Below are positions 1 through 12,137 of a stretch of DNA of 64,000 nt, piece after piece. A program made the position numbers and the translations under genes. The first letter of the stretch is position 1, and each line of letters begins with the position of its first letter. This DNA is from Lentinula raphanica (Eukaryota > Basidiomycota > Agaricomycetes > Agaricales > Omphalotaceae). Location: NCBI GenBank assembly GCA_027919835.1, contig JANVFP010000012.1, positions 806,001 through 870,000 of the forward strand, given 5' to 3'. Below the pieces are notes generated by a model. The model saw nothing but the letters and a program-made list of their open reading frames with translations. It searched no databases and was not told where the DNA came from.

Positions 1-1
1 G

Positions 2-1510
2 CTTACCCAGGTAGTAAACGAGCTCAAGAATGAGGTCAGGGAAAAAGGAACTTCGTCGCGAGAGGGACGATCTTCGAAATCCAGTAAAGGCTGTGCCTGG
101 GATGGATGTCCAGCCAAAGCGTTGAAGGACTGCGCAGATTTGGCTGACTGGGTAGCCAAAGGTCGTGTAGAGCAGAACGAGCGGGGGTACGTCAACCTGA
201 AAGGTGGAGAGGGGTTACCGAGAGACGCCAAATACCAGAAAGGTCTAGTGAAGGAGAGGTTCGAGCGATTCTTTAGTGAGAACCCAACGGCTAGGACCTG
301 GATATTAGACGTACCAGCACCATCATCTCCCCCTCCCGAAAAAGCCGGTCTTGATATAAGCCAGCATACTGCATATACCCTCCAAGGATACCAAGGTCCG
401 CACATGCTAGCAACGGCAGCGGCATACGCCATGCAAAGCGACGATGATCCCAGCGAAGCGGCGGTAGTCCGAGACCTGATATTCAAAATGGAGACGCGCC
501 GAGGGAACCGAGACCGCAACGAAGCGAAGAGTTCGTCGACAACGCCGCCATCAAAGTCCAAACCGAACGCCACAAAGGGAGATCAACCGCCTATCGTGCA
601 GGCAGCGGACCCTGAGCCATCGGTTCCTATTCCACAGCGAATTGTGTCGCAATCTAAAACCACCAAGCCTATTATCGGCAAACTACCCGAAACCTATGTT
701 CCTCCGCAAGAACGAAACCTAGGTGCACCTCCTAAGGATGACACCAAGAACTATCGGTATCGAGCACCTATTGAGACGGAGCAGGCGGTCGAGCGTGTGG
801 TGTCTACGGGGTTACAGAGTTTGGTGACGATCCGCCAAGATGATTTGTTAGCGCTAGCCCCGGATTATAGGAAACGGGTGAAAGAGGCGATCACCAGTCG
901 AAGGATTGGTTTAGATGGTGCTCTCCTAGAAGATACCGGGTTGCTAGAGGGGATAAACTTGTTGGAATCGGAGGTTCATCGAAAAGAAACGGTAGAACTG
1001 CCGTTCTCTGTCTACTTCAACGACTATGGACCGGCCAAGGAAGGTGACGAATATTATGTGGCCAAAGAGACCCATCCCATCCGAGGAGTGAACGCCATAG
1101 TAGGCGAACGAGCCGCTCACTGCGTACTCGACAGTGGCTGCAGTTTGGTAGCGGCATCTTTAGCTGCGTGCAATGCTTTCGGGCTAGCCTTCGATCCCGA
1201 ACGACGGATAAACCTCCAAAGCGCGAATGGTACAACTAATTGGTCCCTGGGATTAGCGAAAGATGTTCCGTTTCGATTCGGGGACGTTCTCGCATTCCTA
1301 CAGGTCCAGGTAGTGGATACCCCCGCCTACGATTTTCTGTTAGGACGACCTTTTGAGGTGCTCATGCAAGCCACGTACAAAAACTTCTATTCAGGAGACC
1401 AACACATCACACTAGTCGATCCCAATACCTCCAAAGCGGTAACTATACCGACGCTCCCTCGAGAGCCTCCGAGATTTAAGAAGGAGGACGGAAGGGAGTT
1501 GCGAAAGTAA
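2..1510 (+). CDS. Gag C-terminus plus retropepsin-like aspartic protease (partial)
   Basis: The frame is open from base 2, so the N-terminus lies outside the window; no in-frame ATG is needed within it. Near the left edge is a Cys-rich stretch (bases about 92-135, Cys-x4-Cys-x7-Cys) that looks like a degenerate zinc knuckle without the usual His. A Pro/Ser/Lys-rich linker follows. The C-terminal third is a retropepsin domain: the catalytic Asp is in VLDSGCSL (about 1126-1149), with LLGRPF near 1338 as the flap-distal motif. It would process the polyprotein in virus-like particles. Pol starts 59 nt downstream in another frame, so pol needs frameshifting or reinitiation. Confidence 0.85.
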   Translation, partial: LTQVVNELKNEVREKGTSSREGRSSKSSKGCAWDGCPAKALKDCADLADWVAKGRVEQNERGYVNLKGGEGLPRDAKYQKGLVKERFERFFSENPTARTWILDVPAPSSPPPEKAGLDISQHTAYTLQGYQGPHMLATAAAYAMQSDDDPSEAAVVRDLIFKMETRRGNRDRNEAKSSSTTPPSKSKPNATKGDQPPIVQAADPEPSVPIPQRIVSQSKTTKPIIGKLPETYVPPQERNLGAPPKDDTKNYRYRAPIETEQAVERVVSTGLQSLVTIRQDDLLALAPDYRKRVKEAITSRRIGLDGALLEDTGLLEGINLLESEVHRKETVELPFSVYFNDYGPAKEGDEYYVAKETHPIRGVNAIVGERAAHCVLDSGCSLVAASLAACNAFGLAFDPERRINLQSANGTTNWSLGLAKDVPFRFGDVLAFLQVQVVDTPAYDFLLGRPFEVLMQATYKNFYSGDQHITLVDPNTSKAVTIPTLPREPPRFKKEDGRELRK

Positions 1511-1569
1511 CGAAGAAGGGAAGTGGGGGAGAAGTCCTGAGTATATCAAACAGAGGACCTCCTTCACAC

Positions 1570-4500
1570 ATGGAGTTCGAGAACCTAGAGGAGGGTGGAC
1601 ACGCCGGATTGGTCATCGACCTTGCGGAAGCTTGGTCATCCTCCGAAGACACCGAACTCTGTAAACAAATCAACATTTCTTTCGTGACTTCTACCTTGGG
1701 CCGTAACCCAAGTAACTCTAAAATTGCGTTATCGTGGCTTCATGCCTATTCCTACTTCCAATACGACACTCCCACTTATGAGGGAGTTCTTTCCCTTGCT
1801 TCTATTTCCGGCGACGATTTGTTCAACCAACGCTCGACCGACGAAGCCTCGGATTCAACTCCGGGAAATAAACAAATTAACGAGTATACACCTGTTTTCA
1901 GTAAGCACGCCAATGAATTTTGTGTGTCTTATCCTGCGTTCGCTGCCACTAAGAAAAGATACAAACCGGTACACCGTCGTGTGGTTCCGGTGCCCGCCAC
2001 ATTACCAGAAAAATTCCGAGTCGTAAGACACTTCCCTTCAGACCCTTTAGAAAATTTACCTCAGATGAATCCTCATCCCCAACCTTTCGAGCCCTTGGGA
2101 CGCTACACGCAGGAGCGGAAGGACTTCATCGATTCCATACACGATACCAACTTCCTTTGGCCCGACGAAATAGCCGCGATCCACCAGCTGATGATGCTAC
2201 ATGAGAAAGCCTTTGCCTGGTGTGAGGAGGAAAAAGGTCAATTAAATCCAAAGTACTTCCCCCCCGTAGAAATGCCCGTCATCGAGCATGTGCCGTGGCG
2301 GGTACCTACTCTTCCCATTCCTCCCGGCCTCCTGGACCGTATAGTGGAGTTAGTAAGGGAGAAGATTAGGACTGGGGTGTATGAACCGTCGAACTCTTCA
2401 TATCGTACGCGGTGGTTTGCAGTGGTCAAGAAGGACGGCACATCCTTGAGGCTCGTCCATGACCTCCAACCGCTAAACGCAGTCACGATTAGGGATTCCT
2501 CAATCCCCCCAATACTGGAAAATCTCGCTGAAGAATATGCTTGCAGATCTGTCCTCGCAACCCTAGACTTGTATGTCGGGTATGACGAACGATCGATCGC
2601 AGTATCGTCCAGGGATTTTACAACGTTCCAAACGCCGTTAGGAGCCCTCCGTCTCACCTCCATTCCTATGGGGTGGACGAATTCTGTACAGATCTTCCAT
2701 GGGGATATCACGTTTATCCTGCAACCAGAGATCCCTGACTATACTATCCCATATATCGATGATGTGAACGTCAAAGGACCCAAGTCACGATACGAACTTC
2801 CGGGTGGGGGCTTCGAGACTATCCCCGAGAATCCAGGAATTCGTCGTTTCATCTGGGAACATCTCACGATGGTGAACCGAATCCTTACTCGAATGGCTTA
2901 TGCAGGCGGAACATTTTCCGGGAAGAAGACGCTTATTGCCGCAGAGGAGGCTATCATAACAGGTCACCTCTGCACCTACGAAGGACGTCGGCCTGATCGA
3001 TCCCGGCTAGCAGCAATAGTGGATTGGGGTCCACTACACAAGCTTACCGACGTTAGGTCGTTTTTGGGTACGGTGGGGGTGTGTCGAATGTTCATTGACA
3101 GATTCGCAGAAAAAGCAGAGCCCCTGGTGCGACTGACTCGGAAAGACATTCCGTTCCAGTTTGGGGAAGCGGAATTGAAGTCCCAACAACAGCTCAAAAA
3201 TGCTGTCATTTCCTGCCCCGCTATACGTCCGCTGGACTACACGTCCTCTCTTCCGATCATTCTCTCCGTCGATACCTCGAAGATTGCAGTGGGGTATGTT
3301 CTTATGCAGCAAGCAGCAGCCGGCTCAACAGTCCGCCACGTCAACCGTTTTGGATCGATCACGCTCAACGACAGGGAATCTCGATACAGTCAAGCAAAGC
3401 TAGAACTCTACGGTCTCTTTCGTGCTCTCCGGGCCACCAGACTGTGGACTGTTGGGGCCCAAACCTTTGTGGTGGAGGTCGACGCGCTGTACATTCGCGG
3501 AATGATCAACCATCCCGATATCCAGCCCAATGCTGCGGTTAACCGGTGGATCGCTGGAATCCTCTTGTTCACCTTTGTTTTAGTCCATGTTCCTTCCGAG
3601 AGAATCGTAGCGGATGGTCCATCCAGAAGGATCAGACAACCATCAGATCCGTTAGAGACAGACGACGACTTCGAGGACTGGATTGACCGTGCCAATGGAT
3701 TCATGCACATTATACATCCTACTCCCTTCCAAAACCGATCATTAGAAGAAGTGATCGATCACCCCATGTTTGGCGTTGAGCCAATTCTAGATAACGATGA
3801 CCCAACGGCTCTCCCCTACGACGTCGTTCCACGGTCCAAAGCTGCCACAGAAGCCGACTCCCGTTTGGATCTGGTGCAAGACTACCTCCTGAATCTTCAG
3901 CGCCCCGAGGGCTATTCGGATGCCCAATACTCTTCCCTAATACATTATTGCCTTCAGTTCTTTGTTGACCCGTCTGGTCGCCTGTGGCATAAAGATCAGC
4001 ACGGTCACCATCGTCTAGTGGTTCCGCAACAACGTAGGCTGCACCTTCTACGAGAAGCACATGATAAGATGGGGCATAAGGGGGTATGGGCTACTACGGC
4101 GACGGTTCGCGAGCGGTTTTGGTGGCCCCACCTCCCTGAAGATGTGAAGTGGTTCGTTAATACTTGTCACCAATGCCAATGCAGACAAACGGAGAAGTTG
4201 CGCATTCCCCCAGTGGTGGCAGAGCCCTTGCATCTGTTCTCGAAATGCTACATGGATACGTTGGAGCTGCCGAAGTCGGGGGGATTCAGATATGTCGTTC
4301 ACGGCAGGTGTTCTTCCTCCGCTTATCCCGAGTTTCGAAAACTCCGCCGCCAGACGGGGGAGGCGATCGCGACATGGATCTTTGAGGATATCCTGTGCCG
4401 GTGGGGTACCCTTTGTGAAATTGTCACCGACAATGGCTCTCCCTTCATCCTTGCACTAGAAATTCTGGCGAAACGTTACGGTATCAGACACATCACCATA

Positions 4501-5202
4501 TCCGCATATAATTCCCAAGCCAATGGAGTCATCGAGCGCAAACATTACGATGTACGGGAGAGCGTTTTGAAAGCTGCGGATAACGAAAATGGCTGGTCAC
4601 CCATCCTCCATACGATATTCTGGGCTGAGCGTGTAACAGCGCGAAAGTCGACGGGCACTAGCCCATATTTTCTGGCTCACGGTATTCAACCTATCCTACC
4701 AATGGACCTCGAGGAGGCCACCTACCTCTTGCCTCCCCCCGATGCGGTGTTGTCCACCGAGGATCTCATAGCGCGACGGTCCCGGGAGCTCCAAAAGCGA
4801 TGGGATGACCTCGAGAGTATGCGAAATCGAGTCCACCGTAATCGGTTGGAATGGGTTCGTAGGTTCGAGGAACAACATCGCCATTCAATTAAAGACCATG
4901 ATTTCAAGACTGGAGACCTGGTGCTTGTCCGCAACACCCGAATCGAGAAGACGTTCAGCGCGAAGAACAGATCGCGGTATATGGGTCCGCTCGTGGTAAT
5001 CCGGCGAAACCGAGGTGGCGCATATGTCCTCGCGGAGCTGGACGGTACGGTGTGGAGGCTACCTGTAGGGGCTTTTAGAGTGATTCCTTACATGGCTCGA
5101 ACTGCCCTACCCATTCCAAACCTCGAGGAGTTTATTGACATATCATCCGACGCCTTGAAGGAGCTGGGAAGTTCGTTGGACACAGGAGAGGCATCCGAGT
5201 GA
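1570..5202 (+). CDS. Pol polyprotein: reverse transcriptase, RNase H, integrase
   Basis: A single 1210-codon frame. Reverse transcriptase covers about residues 240-430: TLDLYVGYDE carries the first catalytic Asp and YIDDVNV the catalytic DD pair. RNase H follows at about 560-690, with Asp in LSVDTSK, Glu in KLELYG, Asp in VEVDAL and Asp in VADGPSR. Integrase has the His-His-Cys-Cys zinc module (HDKMGH to CHQCQ), then Asp in YMDTLELP, Asp in IVTDNGSPF and Glu in NGVIERKH, so the DDE triad is complete. The C-terminal tail has a GPY/F-like patch (YMGPLVVI) and no recognisable chromodomain. No stop or frameshift is visible, unlike the older element around it. Confidence 0.93.
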   Translation: MEFENLEEGGHAGLVIDLAEAWSSSEDTELCKQINISFVTSTLGRNPSNSKIALSWLHAYSYFQYDTPTYEGVLSLASISGDDLFNQRSTDEASDSTPGNKQINEYTPVFSKHANEFCVSYPAFAATKKRYKPVHRRVVPVPATLPEKFRVVRHFPSDPLENLPQMNPHPQPFEPLGRYTQERKDFIDSIHDTNFLWPDEIAAIHQLMMLHEKAFAWCEEEKGQLNPKYFPPVEMPVIEHVPWRVPTLPIPPGLLDRIVELVREKIRTGVYEPSNSSYRTRWFAVVKKDGTSLRLVHDLQPLNAVTIRDSSIPPILENLAEEYACRSVLATLDLYVGYDERSIAVSSRDFTTFQTPLGALRLTSIPMGWTNSVQIFHGDITFILQPEIPDYTIPYIDDVNVKGPKSRYELPGGGFETIPENPGIRRFIWEHLTMVNRILTRMAYAGGTFSGKKTLIAAEEAIITGHLCTYEGRRPDRSRLAAIVDWGPLHKLTDVRSFLGTVGVCRMFIDRFAEKAEPLVRLTRKDIPFQFGEAELKSQQQLKNAVISCPAIRPLDYTSSLPIILSVDTSKIAVGYVLMQQAAAGSTVRHVNRFGSITLNDRESRYSQAKLELYGLFRALRATRLWTVGAQTFVVEVDALYIRGMINHPDIQPNAAVNRWIAGILLFTFVLVHVPSERIVADGPSRRIRQPSDPLETDDDFEDWIDRANGFMHIIHPTPFQNRSLEEVIDHPMFGVEPILDNDDPTALPYDVVPRSKAATEADSRLDLVQDYLLNLQRPEGYSDAQYSSLIHYCLQFFVDPSGRLWHKDQHGHHRLVVPQQRRLHLLREAHDKMGHKGVWATTATVRERFWWPHLPEDVKWFVNTCHQCQCRQTEKLRIPPVVAEPLHLFSKCYMDTLELPKSGGFRYVVHGRCSSSAYPEFRKLRRQTGEAIATWIFEDILCRWGTLCEIVTDNGSPFILALEILAKRYGIRHITISAYNSQANGVIERKHYDVRESVLKAADNENGWSPILHTIFWAERVTARKSTGTSPYFLAHGIQPILPMDLEEATYLLPPPDAVLSTEDLIARRSRELQKRWDDLESMRNRVHRNRLEWVRRFEEQHRHSIKDHDFKTGDLVLVRNTRIEKTFSAKNRSRYMGPLVVIRRNRGGAYVLAELDGTVWRLPVGAFRVIPYMARTALPIPNLEEFIDISSDALKELGSSLDTGEASE

Positions 5203-5468
5203 TGGGATCCGGTTTCGCTGGTCTTCCCCCTCTGAAGCTTCTCGGTCCATGTTTTCTCTTTTTCTGTCTTCTCTCTTTTTTTTTTTCTCTCTCTTTCTGT
5301 TTTCTTACTTTCCTTACTCCAGAAGTGTACTTCCTTTCATGAAATTGATTTTAACTTATTTTGTCTTTCCCTTGTAGTGCACTCCCTCCTCCGACAGGTT
5401 CGCGCTCAATCAGCTCGGATTGATAAGGTGCTGTACGCTATGGTCTACGACTACCCGTACCGCGGCTC
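5203..5468. other. Spacer after pol with a long pyrimidine tract
   Basis: No gene. About 5213-5335 is a C/T-rich tract with a run of T around 5275-5290. It is followed by TTTCCCTTGTAG ending near 5378, which resembles a splice acceptor and could serve a spliced retroelement transcript. That role is inference. Confidence 0.4.
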
Positions 5469-6154
5469 CTAGTCGAAATCGTTTCCCATCCAATTCCAAA
5501 CTCGTTCCATGGCCGCCGATATATCGAACCTCGGGGGGCCCCCCTGATTTCCTTCCATGTACACCCGTGTAACGTTGCGGCGTATTATTCGCACACCGTG
5601 CGACGCCCCGTATACAGAACGGTCGCATTCCTCCACGGGTGGGTCAGCTTCCCAGTGTTCGTAGAGCATTCGGATCATTTCGTCCAGGCTGCCTGTCGTG
5701 TAGAACCTTTGGAAAGTCGGTTAAACCGGTGGTCGCGGCGTACATGGTAGACGGTGACTTGCCTTTCCCCACCATAAAATATCACGAATCTCGGGCTGTC
5801 AGACGCATCCGCCTCGTTGAAGATCACGACTGCGCCTTCTGGCCGTCCACAGGCGAGGTGTTTTAGGATCGCTGGATTCCAACCAATGGCCATGGCGACA
5901 GTTCGGCGCGGGAGGACACTGATAGCTTCGGGATCAACGTCGACCAAGGTGTCGTATACCTCGATCGGGAACGAGGGAATGGCAGTACCCCCTGCCGGTG
6001 TCGGTAGGGACTCGACCTTTCCGTAGGTCATTATCACCTCAAACGCCTTCTCCGCATTTGCTGGGTCAGCTTCCCATTCGCGCAAAGCGCGTTCGTACAT
6101 CAGTTCGTCGTGTTCTCGGGCGTAAAACGCTTCGCGTGGGGTGGGACCTTCCAT
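5469..6154 (-). CDS. Antisense ORF inside the retrotransposon, unknown function, probably one frame break
   Basis: A minus-strand ATG at 6154 opens a 159-codon frame ending at 5675. The coding-like sequence resumes at once in another frame from 5678 to 5469 (69 codons). The two frames meet at an ATGA, so either the gene is frameshifted or the two parts are separate ORFs. The translation is acidic in its first half (MYERALREWEAD, later HWEADPP) and has an alternating hydrophobic core such as RFVIFYGG. No known domain was recognised. It lies wholly between pol and the polypurine tract and is read against the element. Extra ORFs, some antisense, occur at this place in some LTR elements; the role here is unknown. 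Confidence 0.5.
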
Positions 6155-6260
6155 GATGACTCTTTGGGGTTTGTTGTGTTTTTCTTTGGATCTTTCTTCC
6201 TTTGCCTCCTGTTTTTGTACTCCTTGCGGCCTGGCACTGCCTTACCCCTGCGTTTGCATT

Positions 6261-6275
6261 AAAGTGGAGAGGGGG
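6261..6275 (+). promoter_or_regulatory. Polypurine tract, plus-strand primer site
   Basis: The 15-base all-but-one purine run AAAGTGGAGAGGGGG abuts the LTR start TGTCGCGACC exactly, as required for plus-strand DNA synthesis of LTR elements. Confidence 0.85.
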
Positions 6276-6657
6276 TGTCGCGACCCGTACACGGCTGTGC
6301 ACGGAATCGCACCAGGTTCGAATTCTCGAACCCGTACGACACTTGAGGGTGGCCGGACTTTGCTCACCAAAAGGATTAGTCGGGCTGGACTCCCAAAAGG
6401 AGAAATAGATCCGACCTTGTTTCATAAAATTTCCCTTCCACATGTAACGTAGATTTTGGACAGTACTTAGATACGCGTACATGAAGAAGAATAGATAGAT
6501 TTTTCCTGCCGACGAAAAGCTAAAAAGCTTAAGGCCTCCGAAGTCTCATCGATCTCATCAGCTATACCGAAAATCGTTGAACGAAATCTGTCCTCAGTTT
6601 CTCTTCGATTGAACTCTTCCCCCGAACTTGCCTCTGATCTGACTCGTACTCGGGACA
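6276..6657 (+). repeat. 3' long terminal repeat (about 382 bp)
   Basis: It begins TGTCGCGACC right after the polypurine tract and is proposed to end at CGGGACA, giving TGTC...GACA termini. The end is supported by biology: from 6658 on, the minus strand reads as the C-terminal part of the surrounding transposase. The next five bases are GTGAG, the predicted target-site duplication. The 5' LTR is not in the window, so the exact end was not confirmed by alignment. Confidence 0.75.
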
Positions 6658-9600
6658 GTGAGGAGCATTACACTAATCGATACAAGCACATCGAAGTTGG
6701 TGTGATCATGTGGTCGAAGGTCAACCCGGGAGGGGTCACGATGGTCGGGGGAAGACAGAGCTGACACCAAATCAGTAACAGCAGACCTAGACTCTGAAGA
6801 AAGTTCGGCAGCTTCTTCATCTGCCTCTTCTGCTTCAGTAGATAGGGCCGCTCTGTATACCAATAGCGTTATTGATGATCGGAATAGTAAAAAAGCGAAC
6901 TTACAGGTTGATATTCTTGTCCAATTCCAGTGCTACAGCTGCAAATCGTTGCGACATCAAACACCTTTCTTCTTCGAGTGTATCAGGTTCTACGTGCTCT
7001 ACCATTTCGAGAGCGGAAAGAAGAGTACCAGACTCATCAACCTCTTCACTTTCGCACTCTGAGCCATCATTGTCATTGTCATTGTCGACACATGTGGGAG
7101 ATAAGGGAGGAATTGTGGTACTAGGTGCTACCATGTTCGTATGGAGGGAAGCGTTGGTGATCCTTGATGCTTCAGCTCATCAGGAGACAGGCCAAAAAGG
7201 CAGAAAAGATCAGAAGCATCACTGTAAGCCATACGTGATGCTTCGTCAATCTGGTTATCAGTAGGGAAGAGAGATAAGCTCTTGACATCAACACCATGAC
7301 GATCGAGATAGCTATGGTTGTAACCACTTGCCCTCGCTTTGGAATCAGATGACTGCCAGGACTGATGAACAGCTCGCTCGAGCATCATCGTTAACTTGGG
7401 CTTGAGCGTATACCAACTGTAAAGGGTAAAATCTGGATCAAGTGTGCGAGCCATTCCAAAGACGTGTTCACACAGGGAAGTACCAGCGAGATAAGTGAAA
7501 AGCGCCCATTGTCGACCAAGGTGGTCGCAATGGATGTATAGAAGCTCGAAGAAGCCACGAATCGAGATCCGGATGATATCCACCACCTCCTTCGAGAGAA
7601 AGTACTTTGTCTTGGGATATGATGCCTGATCTAGGAAAGTTTCCCAGAAATCCAGGAAAAAATATGCTCGCAATACCATCCTGCAACGATGTAAGAGACC
7701 AACACTTCTGTTCTGATAGGCGTCAACGAGTTCTCCAAAAACAAAGAGATAGACCACAAGACCGATGTGAGTTTCTGAGCGATCCTTGGATGATAGCCAT
7801 TCAATCGTAGAAGCCGAAAACAGCCTCTGCGCTGCATTGTCATCCTGACGGTCAAGCTTGATAACATCGCGCTTGAATAGAGGTCCATCCTGCAGTGCAA
7901 TTTCGCGGATTTGCGAAAACATAATGACGCAATTGGGGAAGACTAGAACGCGCGCACCACTCAAGGCATTGTTCTGAAGAGTTTTGAGAAGATGTAGGTC
8001 ATCTTGTATACAAGTGAGAGGATTTCCGTTGTAGAATTTGACTTTGAAGACAATAGATCTATCTCCAGTTCGAGGATCATAGACAGTGTATGTGTGAGTT
8101 TTATCGGCGGCAAGCTCAAGTCTGTGCTGAACATTACGCTCGGTGGTAGTCCCATCACAGGAGTATCCAATAACATGGATTTTACGCTCCCAGAGTCCCT
8201 GAAGGATATCCCAGGTGAACGAAAATAACTCGGGAACTTTCAGTGATTTCGAAATGCCTTTCGCCGCTAAGACATACGCCGCAGCTCCAGGACAAAGGGG
8301 TTGTAAGCAAAAAAGACGAAGCTAGACGAAATGATCATTGTGTTTGGATGGTATACAGGCTCATATCGTACCTTGGTAGCCTTTTCAACAAGTGCGTCCT
8401 TCAAGGCTTCATGAAATTCTTCAGGGTTCGCCACAGTCAAAGGTTTACCGGTCGATCCTAGCAGGCAGTACGCATCACGATCAGCATCATAGAATGGTCG
8501 TATTGCTGGCTGAAGCTCCGTATCATCGACACAGATAATGTAAGGACCTTCTTGAAGCCCAATTTTCTTGACATGCTCCCACGCAAGTTCAAATGTTCGT
8601 TCATTGATATCGACTGGGAATTTTGGGACTTGTGCTCGATGTCGCCTACCAGATTCATCAGTATGAAGATTCGGACCAAGCGAAGTTTACTGACTGTAGA
8701 GTTCGACGATTGGGAAGAGGTATATATTCCTTCAGCACACGAAACGCCTGGGGACTGATCATTTCGATGATTTCTCCGAGCTCAGCTAGCGTTGGCGGCA
8801 TCTTCATTCCTTGAAGACCGACATCTCGAGCTTTTTTGTCATTGATGATGGTCAGCGCTTTGAGAAAATCACCGAAGAATTGGTCTTGCATTGAAGTTTC
8901 TTGCTCGCCATCGAGAACGGCAGCAGCATACTTGATACAAGGGGTTCTGTGTGTTTTCTTTCAAGAAGCGTAGTCAGTACTTAGCTGTTTCAACTATCAT
9001 TACAAAAGACACTAGTTACCTCTTTGGAATCTGCACTAGGAGTAAACAGTTCTTCTATGCCTTTTGAACGTGCATAGATTTGAGCAATCGACTCATTCAG
9101 ATATTGCTTTGGTAGATATCGAAAGTTGTAGGCACTGGGTATCAGTCGTTTTATTGCTCGACGGAACCTCCGAAGACGGAGGAGTGCGATACAGTTGTCA
9201 CAAGCAGAGGCATCGTGCGATGCCTTACCAGTACACGTAGATGCACAGACTCTCTCCAGTTCATGGTAATTGAACCACTTCCACTGTCTACGCTGAGCTG
9301 CCTTGACAACCTCTTTCCTCTTGTCAATCAGACGGCGATACGGTTTACCGTAATAGTAGCGAGCAAGTTTGGTGACACTGGGTGAACCTCCTCCCAACGC
9401 CCCAGTCCAGGTGAGATATTGGCGAATCAGAGGATGGTCATCACTAGTTAAGCCTGGACATGGTTCATCAGCGTTGGTGGATGGTTGAGGTGATGGCTTG
9501 TGTGAGGATGGAGAACCTGAGGTACGCTTCGAGATAGGTTGGAAGAACTTCTTGATATCCTGATTATTCTTGACAACGTCACCACGTCCGTTACAGTAAT

Positions 9601-11738
9601 GTTTCATGTGCTTGAGAAAGTTCCCTAGCTGAAACGGCGCTCCAAGCTTCTGTGTCTTCCCGCACTGAGAATGAATAACTTCCTTTCCATTGATTACACG
9701 AGCATGAGGATCGATACGACGAACACAAGAGATGAATTTACGCATGCGAGCGCGACCTTCCCGGTTTTTACAAGATGGATCAGTTGCCCAGTTCAGATTC
9801 TGCTGACGCGCCCATGCCGAAGACTTGGCCACACCTGTGAGACGCCGAGAGGGCTCTGACATAGAGGATGAGAGTGCAGCTGGGGCAGAATCTGGATTGA
9901 GTTCTGAATCTGACCCAAAGAACGAATCTTCAGTATGGACTGTGGCTTCTGAGAGTGAATCGGATTCGTATTCAACGTAATCGCGGGAAGGTACGTCTTC
10001 GTCAGACTCGGATTCGCACATGTTTCTTTGTCGTTTACTGCTAACTGCTTGATCAGTGGTCGGCGACACTGGTTCTTCAAACCCGCTCATCAACATTGCA
10101 TTTACTGAGGTTTGGGGTGTTTCGGTTGCGCAAGTAGTAGGCTCAGGTCCATTCAAGAGCGACAAGATATCGATTCTGGGACGATACAGAGGATCAGAAT
10201 ACGAGTTCGAGTGTGGATTGAGAAGGGAGGTGATGTGTAGTTTGGAACCTGGCGCCGGCTCTGCAAACGTTGAGTGTTCAAATTCTGGATCCTCCGTTGT
10301 GACTGATTGTGGATCGTTCAAAAGGTTATCGATACGCATTGTGCCGAGTCCATGCATAGGTACCTCTGGGACATCAATGTTCATCTGACAGCGACAGCAT
10401 TATCAACGAATTGCACGAGATGTATCAACCATAATCTTACCTTCGAAAGGATCAGCCCTGCTACTCGATTGAAAGTTGAAACACGGTGCTCGGTTTTTTT
10501 CTCAGCAGTCCAAAGAGGCGTATCAGGAAAGACAGCATGCTCAATTGCGTTGACACAGATGAAACCGCAATTCACGAAATCATCTTGCACTCCATGAACC
10601 AGTACATTTCCATTCGTCGGGAGCGCAAATTTCTTATCTGCGAACTGATACTCTAGCCAACACTTGAGGCGACGAAGAATGCTTTGAGGCCAAGGGTTAC
10701 CCTCTATTCCATCGGCTACAACAGTTATGAGCATCTTCACTTGACGAGAGATATTGAAAACATACCATAGGTTATTGATGGTGAGACTTTCTCTGTTAAA
10801 CTGATTTTCAACGCAATCCAATGTTTCTTCTTTTGCCAATGCACAGGGCAATACACAACCTCCTTGTCTACCACTCGTTCTTTTATTCTCCTCAGTGAGC
10901 TGTGATCTGATAGCTCAGCAACTGATCTCTGCTTCTTTGACTCAAGCCCCTCAACGAGTGGTTCCATAAGCCGCAAGCTCTCGACAACTATCTTCGAGTC
11001 CAAGTCTTCATCCTGCTCGATGCGATCCGAAACCAGGCCCAGCAAGATATCGATCATATTACTGTTGAGCCATCGATCTCCAAGCAAACGAGAGAGGTCA
11101 CTAGTCATGCCGTTACTCGATGCATACGTCAAGTCTAGCTTCTGGAGGGATACGTGGGCAGGAAGCACCCGCATGATGGCCAACGTCCTCGAGATATCAG
11201 CTTCTCGAACAGCCTCTCTATGCAGCCAGTCAATAACGTCGCTCCAGCTTTTCTGACATTCTATCGACATGTGTAGATACCACCAAATCTCGATGATGTA
11301 GAGTGGGAATCGGCGCATCGTGTCATTTGGGTCTGTAATTGCCTCTTTTCTATCAATGACTGCTTGATTGACCTCTTTTCGCAAGGATTGAACAATTTCC
11401 TTGGGTGGAATAGAAGTGGGAATTGTGAACGAGTCGGTGTAGTTTGGAAGTTCGCAAGAGAACCATAACGGGATGTGGGGCAACGCAAGGCCACTATAGA
11501 TGTTTGGAAGAGGGAGTCGAACAAACTCGAGGACAGGTGCTGAGAGGACAGGTAATTTTCATTGTATATGTGAAGGTATTTTCTGTAGTCGCCGAATGTA
11601 TAGTCGAACATCGGCTGGTAGCTGTGAGTCGTTCGAGGGGATGGTTTTATGGGTTCCTAACCATTGCTTGAGTACTTTTGCATTGGGCTGCTCCTCTTCG
11701 TCTGAAGAATCAATAATGACAAATGGTTCTTGTGCCAT
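6658..11738 (-). pseudogene. SIM-Ulp1 protease-zinc finger-RNase-H-like transposase fusion, lightly decayed
   Basis: Exons by splice phase: 11738-10766, 10715-10441, 10384-9020, 8957-8695, 8645-8372, 8321-7128 (about 1,366 codons). The N-terminus carries FVIIDSSDEEE, a textbook SUMO-interacting motif. Next is a C48 (Ulp1) protease: His in KKKHWIAL, Asp in ITYADG (formed across an intron), Gln in VQDDF, Cys in VNCGFICV. Exon 3 carries a zinc-finger-like C...H...H..C segment (HSQCG to HMKHYC) and a second Cys cluster. The rest resembles P-element/THAP9-type transposases: ICVDDTEL, SCDGTTTERNV and DDLHLLKTLQN. Defects: in-frame TGA at 11561-11559 (single C-to-T from CGA) and a frame break at 7128, after which acidic coding (7127-6901, 6863-6658) continues until the LTR. 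The family assignment of the transposase part is inference. Confidence 0.75.
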
Positions 11739-11925
11739 TGCAGACTCGAAGGAAGAAATTTTTTTAAAAATGAGCACGAACAATAATCAGGATACTTAGG
11801 GGCACGATATCTATGAGATATGCTCATATTCCTACTAAGGTTATCTATAGTAGTATTGCTAAGAGGTTATAGTGGCTACTCAGTCTGGGCTCTAGGGTAT
11901 ATGGATCGAACCCTTGAAAGAGCAC

Positions 11926-12071
11926 CATTTTTACCCGAACGTGCAGTCAGAGCACTCCAAAACCCTCATTTTTACCCGAATTTAGGCGCAGAGATTTCAA
12001 AAATTTTGGGCCATTTTTACCCGAACTGGGCGCTGACTATGTCTCAAGAAACCCCCCATTTTTACCCGAAC
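11926..12071 (+). repeat. Four direct copies of CATTTTTACCCGAAC, 41-45 bp apart
   Basis: Copies start at 11926, 11967 (last base differs), 12012 and 12057. They lie 190-330 bp upstream of the transposase-fusion start codon, where subterminal transposase-binding repeats or promoter elements of a DNA transposon would sit. The spacing of 41, 45 and 45 bp is about four helical turns. Confidence 0.85.
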
Positions 12072-12137
12072 GCGAACAGGGGTTTTGGTGGGCTGCTGGG
12101 GGTCCTCATGCACATTGACAGTACATTGCACAGGTGT

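What the first reader, a model, noticed from the sequence alone, without database searches (positions are those of the whole stretch)
7128..11738. A SUMO-interacting motif, a SUMO-type protease and a transposase in one spliced protein
Removing five GT-AG introns in exact phase joins FVIIDSSDEEE (a canonical SIM), a complete Ulp1/C48 catalytic set (His, Asp, Gln, Cys), a zinc finger and an RNase-H-like transposase with a D..HLLK..N motif. A transposase that carries both a SUMO reader and a SUMO eraser could strip SUMO from host repressors bound at its own ends. The joining of the protease to the transposase depends on the 56-nt intron at 10440-10385, whose removal turns an ATGA overlap into one frame.
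Basis: partly seen in the sequence, partly recalled or inferred. Interest (0 to 1): 0.75.

Follow-up and report, generated by a model that had tools for sequence, protein, structure and literature searches.

The report
P-element-type mushroom transposase fused to SUMO protease
A mushroom genome holds a decayed jumping gene whose DNA-cutting enzyme is of the fly P-element type and carries, in the same protein, a SUMO-removing-type protease, a pairing seen in many mushroom relatives that may help such elements evade host silencing.

The parts
12107..12114 (+). 8-bp target-site duplication, identical to the 8 bases beyond the other end of the element (G000:C12:803275-803282, outside the window)
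12083..12106 (-). 24-bp terminal inverted repeat at the gene's 5' side; the partner is at G000:C12:803283-803306 (one difference)
11925..12071 (+). subterminal array of four CATTTTTACCCGAA[C/T] repeats (start spacing 41, 45, 45); three more in the same orientation near the other end. Candidate transposase binding sites (inference)
10766..11738 (-). exon 1: N-terminal tail, conserved N-terminal region, first half of the Ulp1 domain
11691..11723 (-). FVIIDSSDEEE, SIM-like hydrophobic-acidic motif
   Evidence: retained in a relic at C39:395177; family-wide control
11559..11561 (-). in-frame TGA; a sense codon in the C11 copy and a residue in L. raphanica P0081; CpG-type transition
10441..11132 (-). 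Ulp1/C48 protease domain (boundaries approximate), interrupted by intron 10765-10716; His 10823-10821, Asp 10713-10711, Gln 10587-10585, Cys 10569-10567
10716..10765 (-). intron 1 (50 nt)
   Evidence: an alternative acceptor near 10704, implied by two relatives' gene models, would drop the Asp
10441..10715 (-). exon 2
10385..10440 (-). intron 2 (56 nt) whose removal joins the protease to the transposase
9020..10384 (-). exon 3: acidic/Ser-rich linker, C-C-H-C zinc finger, DNA-binding region
9593..9727 (-). putative zinc-finger residues C636, C657, H675, C680
   Evidence: C657, H675 and C680 counted; C636 not counted
9202..9756 (-). stretch (555 nt, in frame) missing from the C11 copy; removes the zinc finger there
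8695..8957 (-). exon 4: HTH region (Tnp_P_element HTH, PF12017, in some relatives)
8372..8645 (-). exon 5: first strands of RNase H; first catalytic Asp 8527-8525
7128..8321 (-). exon 6: second Asp 8156-8154, DDLHLLK 8003-7983, helical insertion, Glu 7469-7467; the apparent stop 7130-7128 is a frameshift product
6673..7127 (-). continuation of the transposase gene beyond the apparent stop (homology to P0001, P0003, P0004)
1..6672 (.). right part of an 8.15-kb LTR retrotransposon inserted in the element (396-bp LTR at 6277-6672, 99.7% identical to the left LTR; CTAAT duplicated)

Best explanation
The region is a decayed copy of a cut-and-paste DNA transposon of the P superfamily in an agaric, probably a Lentinula. 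Its single gene codes for a long protein: an N-terminal tail with a SIM-like motif, a Ulp1-type protease, an acidic linker, a C-C-H-C zinc finger, an HTH, an RNase H core split by a mostly helical insertion as in P-element transposase, and a further C-terminal region. SHOWN: element ends, 8-bp duplications, short non-autonomous copies, conserved catalytic sets, P-element-type fold of a homologue, and long co-inheritance of protease and transposase. INFERRED: the zinc finger binds the subterminal CATTTTTACCCGAA repeats, the transposase excises and inserts with 8-bp staggers, and the tethered protease removes SUMO (or a similar tag) from proteins at the element's chromatin or in the transpososome, aiding escape from silencing or assembly and repair. 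The window copy is dead; the excess of CpG-type transitions suggests that it was methylated.
Against: No biochemical or transcript evidence. Both long copies in this genome are defective. PF02902 was not found in 13 of 26 homologues, some of which lack that part. PF12017 was only E 0.11 in the window exon and absent from the spliced window protein and from P0028. By sequence alone the A2 profile did not find the P-element chains. At the Glu column 3 of 39 aligned residues are Lys. SIM enrichment is not clearly beyond composition. Tree agreement shows co-inheritance within an element, not by itself one polypeptide; one pair of well-supported splits conflicts.
Confidence: 0.6

Rival explanations
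1. The protease acts on the transpososome and on DNA-repair factors (SUMO-regulated end joining), not on silencing proteins at the element.
For: Bao et al. (PMC2836005, passages) propose repair or transposition roles for the Ulp1/OTU domains of Ginger1. The domain is fused to the enzyme itself.
Against: No data here separate this from anti-silencing; CpG-type decay hints at silencing pressure on this element.
Confidence: 0.3
2. The Ulp1 domain was captured from the host or from other elements and is only tolerated.
For: The own genome has 36 Peptidase_C48 matches, so such domains are at hand. Ulp1 diverges more than the transposase (mean distance 0.73 against 0.57).
Against: H, Q and C kept in 32 of 33 proteins despite that divergence, and co-inheritance, point to selection.
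Confidence: 0.15
3. Protease and transposase are made as two proteins: intron 10440-10385 is retained and the ATGA overlap restarts translation.
For: The overlap exists at 10384-10381.
Against: Annotated relatives read through this point as one frame, P0081 with exactly this splice; 20 proteins hold both catalytic sets.
Confidence: 0.08
4. The protease matures its own polyprotein by cutting at the Gly-Gly(-Gly) stretch before the HTH.
For: GG is found at this place in most aligned members that cover it, and Ulp1 enzymes cut after Gly-Gly (recalled).
Against: P0057 has the H-D-Q-C set without GG there, and P0037 and P0060 lack GG too; Ulp1 needs a folded SUMO (recalled).
Confidence: 0.05

Closest known systems
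Drosophila P element / THAP9 transposase (P superfamily)
   Same: RNase H core with mostly helical insertion, D-D-E, D(2)H signature, 8-bp duplications, subterminal sites, short internally deleted copies
   Different: No THAP domain found; C-C-H-C finger instead; large N-terminal Ulp1 domain and a further C-terminal region; the C11 copy is 6.1 kb even with a deletion, against 2.9 kb for P (PMC7776569, passage)
Ginger1 DNA transposons
   Same: Transposase carrying a Ulp1 (or OTU) protease domain (PMC2836005, passages)
   Different: Gypsy-integrase-like transposase with C-terminal Ulp1; here P-type transposase with N-terminal Ulp1
Mutator elements with Ulp1 (hydra, lancelet, Arabidopsis, maize, rice, melon)
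   Same: Ulp1-type protease coded in a DNA transposon (same passages)
   Different: Different transposase superfamily
Zisupton / KDZ elements of fungi and fish
   Same: Cut-and-paste elements present in agarics (PMC12730594, abstract); their Ulp1 association is recalled, not seen in a call
   Different: No KDZ or Zisupton model was returned in the Pfam scans here; the fold match is to P-element transposase
Yeast Ulp1 / human SENP1
   Same: Catalytic domain and H-D-Q-C set
   Different: Not part of a transposase

Membership tests
P superfamily | RNase H fold with D-D-E | tested here: met
   First Asp in 47 of 47, second in 49 of 49, Glu in 36 of 39 non-gap rows of 51; fold of homologue P0028
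P superfamily | Mostly helical insertion between strand 5 and the helix with Glu | tested here: met
   Model of P0028: after strand 225-228 mainly helices (two short strands) up to the helix 405-417 with E408; model 36..439 aligned with P-element 197..565
P superfamily | [C/D](2)H signature after strand 5 | tested here: met
   D229 and H232 listed as invariant in 30 members; definition from PMC8230255 passages
P superfamily | HTH of P type (PF12017) | tested here: met
   Met in a minority of relatives: 6 of 26 (E up to 0.1, best 2.1e-5) and 6 of 30 (E up to 1, best 2.5e-6); in the window only E 0.11, not returned for the spliced protein
P superfamily | 8-bp target duplications and TIRs | tested here: met
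P superfamily | GTP as cofactor | not testable with these tools
   Needs biochemistry; residue-level mapping of the GTP contacts was not done
[quoted passage not shown]
   No THAP hit in the window protein or in 26 and 30 homologues. The review says THAP is restricted to animals (PMC7776569 passages), so I do not file it in this subgroup
Ulp1/C48 peptidases | His-Asp-Gln-Cys set in a C48 domain | tested here: met
   Asp depends on the first-intron acceptor
Ulp1/C48 peptidases | SUMO-specific cleavage | not testable with these tools
   No assay
KDZ/Zisupton | KDZ-type transposase | tested here: inconclusive
   No such model returned in Pfam scans; no direct comparison made

The most novel reading that the evidence does not exclude
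A whole lineage of P-superfamily transposons in mushrooms carries a SUMO reader and a SUMO eraser in its transposase, tethers them to its own ends through the zinc finger, and strips SUMO from chromatin silencing proteins there: a built-in counter-silencing device in the family best known from fly hybrid dysgenesis.
Probability: 0.3. Interest if true: 0.8.

Novelty: new variant of a known kind. Interest (0 to 1): 0.55.

Why it matters
P-element silencing is a model for how genomes tame transposons, and SUMO conjugation is part of transposon silencing in animals (recalled). A long-lived P-type lineage with its own SUMO-type protease would give a direct way to test whether transposons fight back at the SUMO step, with one residue (the Cys) to change in an intact relative. 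It also extends Ulp1 capture to another transposase superfamily and gives a fungal branch of P elements with a different DNA-binding domain.

Tried and rejected
Conserved SIM as a family trait: only suggestive. Gly-Gly self-cleavage: weak. The 58% paralogue at C9 was searched for Ulp1: only a 3' piece and an opposite-strand relative were matched, with no Ulp1 match in that 7.3-kb stretch. A profile search with A3 returned only its own first row among 7996 scored candidates, so nothing new. The A2 profile found no P-element chain by sequence in the PDB set at E up to 10; the relation rests on structure, the signature and PF12017. Folding P0028 without an alignment gave a useless model (pLDDT 35). 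NCBIfam gave nothing of use. A search of the own genome with PF12017 found nothing there or in the 14 controls, hence uninformative. The Rhizophagus relative P0108 (830 aa) shows no C48 match, but its gene model may be partial.

Full report
WHAT IS IN THE SEQUENCE. The gene lies on the minus strand. The frame holds FVIIDSSDEEE, the four Ulp1 residues (His306, Asp326, Gln368, Cys374), a C-C-H-C finger and the transposase motifs.

A BROKEN COPY OF A REAL TRANSPOSON. A second long copy on contig C11 is 99% identical. Comparing the two gives the ends: a 24-bp terminal inverted repeat at window 12083-12106 and at C12:803283-803306, flanked by the same 8 bases. The C11 copy (C11:365527-371648) has a perfect 8-bp duplication too. 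Eighteen loci with short copies were fetched; 17 have two recognisable ends, of which 15 have perfect and 2 imperfect 8-bp duplications; three of the 17 share one duplication sequence (up to strand) and may be one event; the 18th locus had one end only and was left out of the count. Further inverted-repeat hits, for example on C23, C25, C28 and C56, were not examined. A repeat CATTTTTACCCGAA[C/T] sits four times near one end and three times near the other, in the same orientation; the 16-mer CCATTTTTACCCGAAC with at most one mismatch occurs 72 times in the genome against 0 for the reversed pattern. The inverted repeat with at most three mismatches occurs 42 times against 0.

HOW THE COPY IS BROKEN. 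In the window copy the codon at 11561-11559 is a stop where C11 has a sense codon. A 7-nt length difference shifts the frame at 7130, and an 8.15-kb insert with 396-bp LTRs (99.7% identical) and a 5-bp duplication splits the 3' part of the gene. Homologues align beyond 7128 down to 6675 and again on the far side of the insert. The C11 copy lacks 555 nt in frame, including the zinc finger. A search with the main Ulp1 exon finds only these two copies in the genome at E up to 0.001. Of 29 substitutions between the copies in the part 6673-12106, 17 are CpG in C11 and TpG or CpA in the window, and 2 are CpG in the window and not in C11; this is what deamination of methylated CpG in the window copy would leave (inference). 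Four further differences in the left part were not classified.

THE PROTEASE. Peptidase_C48 matches the window ORF at E 7.9e-7. A profile of 26 homologues matches yeast Ulp1 at E 3.1e-14 and SENP1 at 1.2e-9. The window protein was aligned with 50 of the 112 proteins held; 33 of the 50 cover the His, Gln and Cys columns; 32 have all three and 27 also Asp. The six without the full set are P0001, P0007, P0010, P0011, P0081 and P0027. Some of this may come from gene models with another acceptor at intron 1; the Asp counted for P0002 may also be a product of such a model. Pfam itself recognised C48 in 13 of 26 at E up to 0.1; some of the 26 lack that part.

ONE LINEAGE, CO-INHERITED PARTS. The first search found 26 proteins (only the 7988 candidates sharing most words were scored); all 26 are named from mushroom genera (Agaricomycetes; placement of the genera recalled), and six align over 98-99% of the query. 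A second search with the transposase part found 94, including unnamed metagenomic ones and one from Rhizophagus. Twenty proteins carry H-D-Q-C and D-D-E together. In 29 sequences long enough in both parts (the window and 28 of the 50 homologues), distances in Ulp1 and transposase correlate at r 0.81 with 0 of 2000 permutations as high (maximum 0.22), and 18 of 26 tree splits are shared. One pair of splits with support of at least 0.9 conflicts; the two differ in where P0040 and P0048, among others, fall. P0043, one of the 29, has non-catalytic residues in its Ulp1 columns. So protease and transposase have travelled together for much of the history of the family. This shows co-inheritance in one element; that they are one polypeptide rests on the phase of the splice, on P0081, which spans it residue by residue, and on gene models in many species, not on RNA.

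THE SIM. FVIIDSSDEEE fits the recalled SIM pattern. Tails could be defined in 24 of 113 proteins (the 112 held and the window; P0081 is a near copy of the window). A strict pattern was met in 7 of 24; 149 of 2000 shuffles of the tails reach that, and 3 of 2000 sets of random windows from the same proteins. So the tails are SIM-like in composition, and the order adds little. A relic at C39:395177 shares only 44 nt with the element, and these code for IVVDSSDDEEQPNAK, which is at least consistent with constraint there.

COMPARISON WITH WHAT IS KNOWN. Ulp1 in transposases is known: Ginger1 elements and several Mutator elements, with the suggestion that the ubiquitin/SUMO pathway takes part in transposition (PMC2836005, passages). 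The review of P elements says that THAP domains are not found in fungi (PMC7776569, passages). Kojima's 2025 paper on TET/JBP in fungal transposons (PMC12730594; abstract, outline and a term search) has no occurrence of ulp, protease, peptidase, sumo, thap or P element. Ten searches of open papers listed no paper that by title or start of abstract reports a P-superfamily element with Ulp1. Two listings were capped (20 of 63 and 20 of 89); subscription papers and Repbase were not searchable, and one likely source was not held. I therefore file it as a new variant of a known kind.

MECHANISM. Most likely the protein binds the subterminal repeats, pairs the ends, and cuts and inserts like P element; the Ulp1 part, held at the ends, removes SUMO from proteins there. 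Whether these are silencing proteins, the transposase itself or repair factors cannot be told from sequence.

Noticed in passing
window 1-6672 with C12:804524-806000: Young LTR retrotransposon (LTRs 396 bp, 99.7% identical) nested in the P-type element; 5-bp duplication CTAAT.
   Followed up: partly
G000, 36 matches: Peptidase_C48 matches are numerous in this genome, at many places beyond the two P-type copies; some may be other transposons that carry Ulp1.
   Followed up: no
L008 (C11:365527-371648): The C11 copy has an in-frame 555-nt deletion that removes the zinc finger but leaves the main protease exon open; it could resemble internally deleted P elements that act as repressors (idea).
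   Followed up: partly
L071 (C9:36500-43800) and the C24 and C21 matches: Related P-type transposases at 56-58% and 34% identity lie head to head on three contigs, in what look like duplicated segments.
   Followed up: partly
L006, position 5178 (C39:395177): Relic in which only the SIM-coding stretch of the element is recognisable.
   Followed up: yes
P0108 (Rhizophagus irregularis): Distant relative with a finger-like stretch and transposase but no C48 match and no GGG motif; possible ancestral form, if the gene model is complete.
   Followed up: partly
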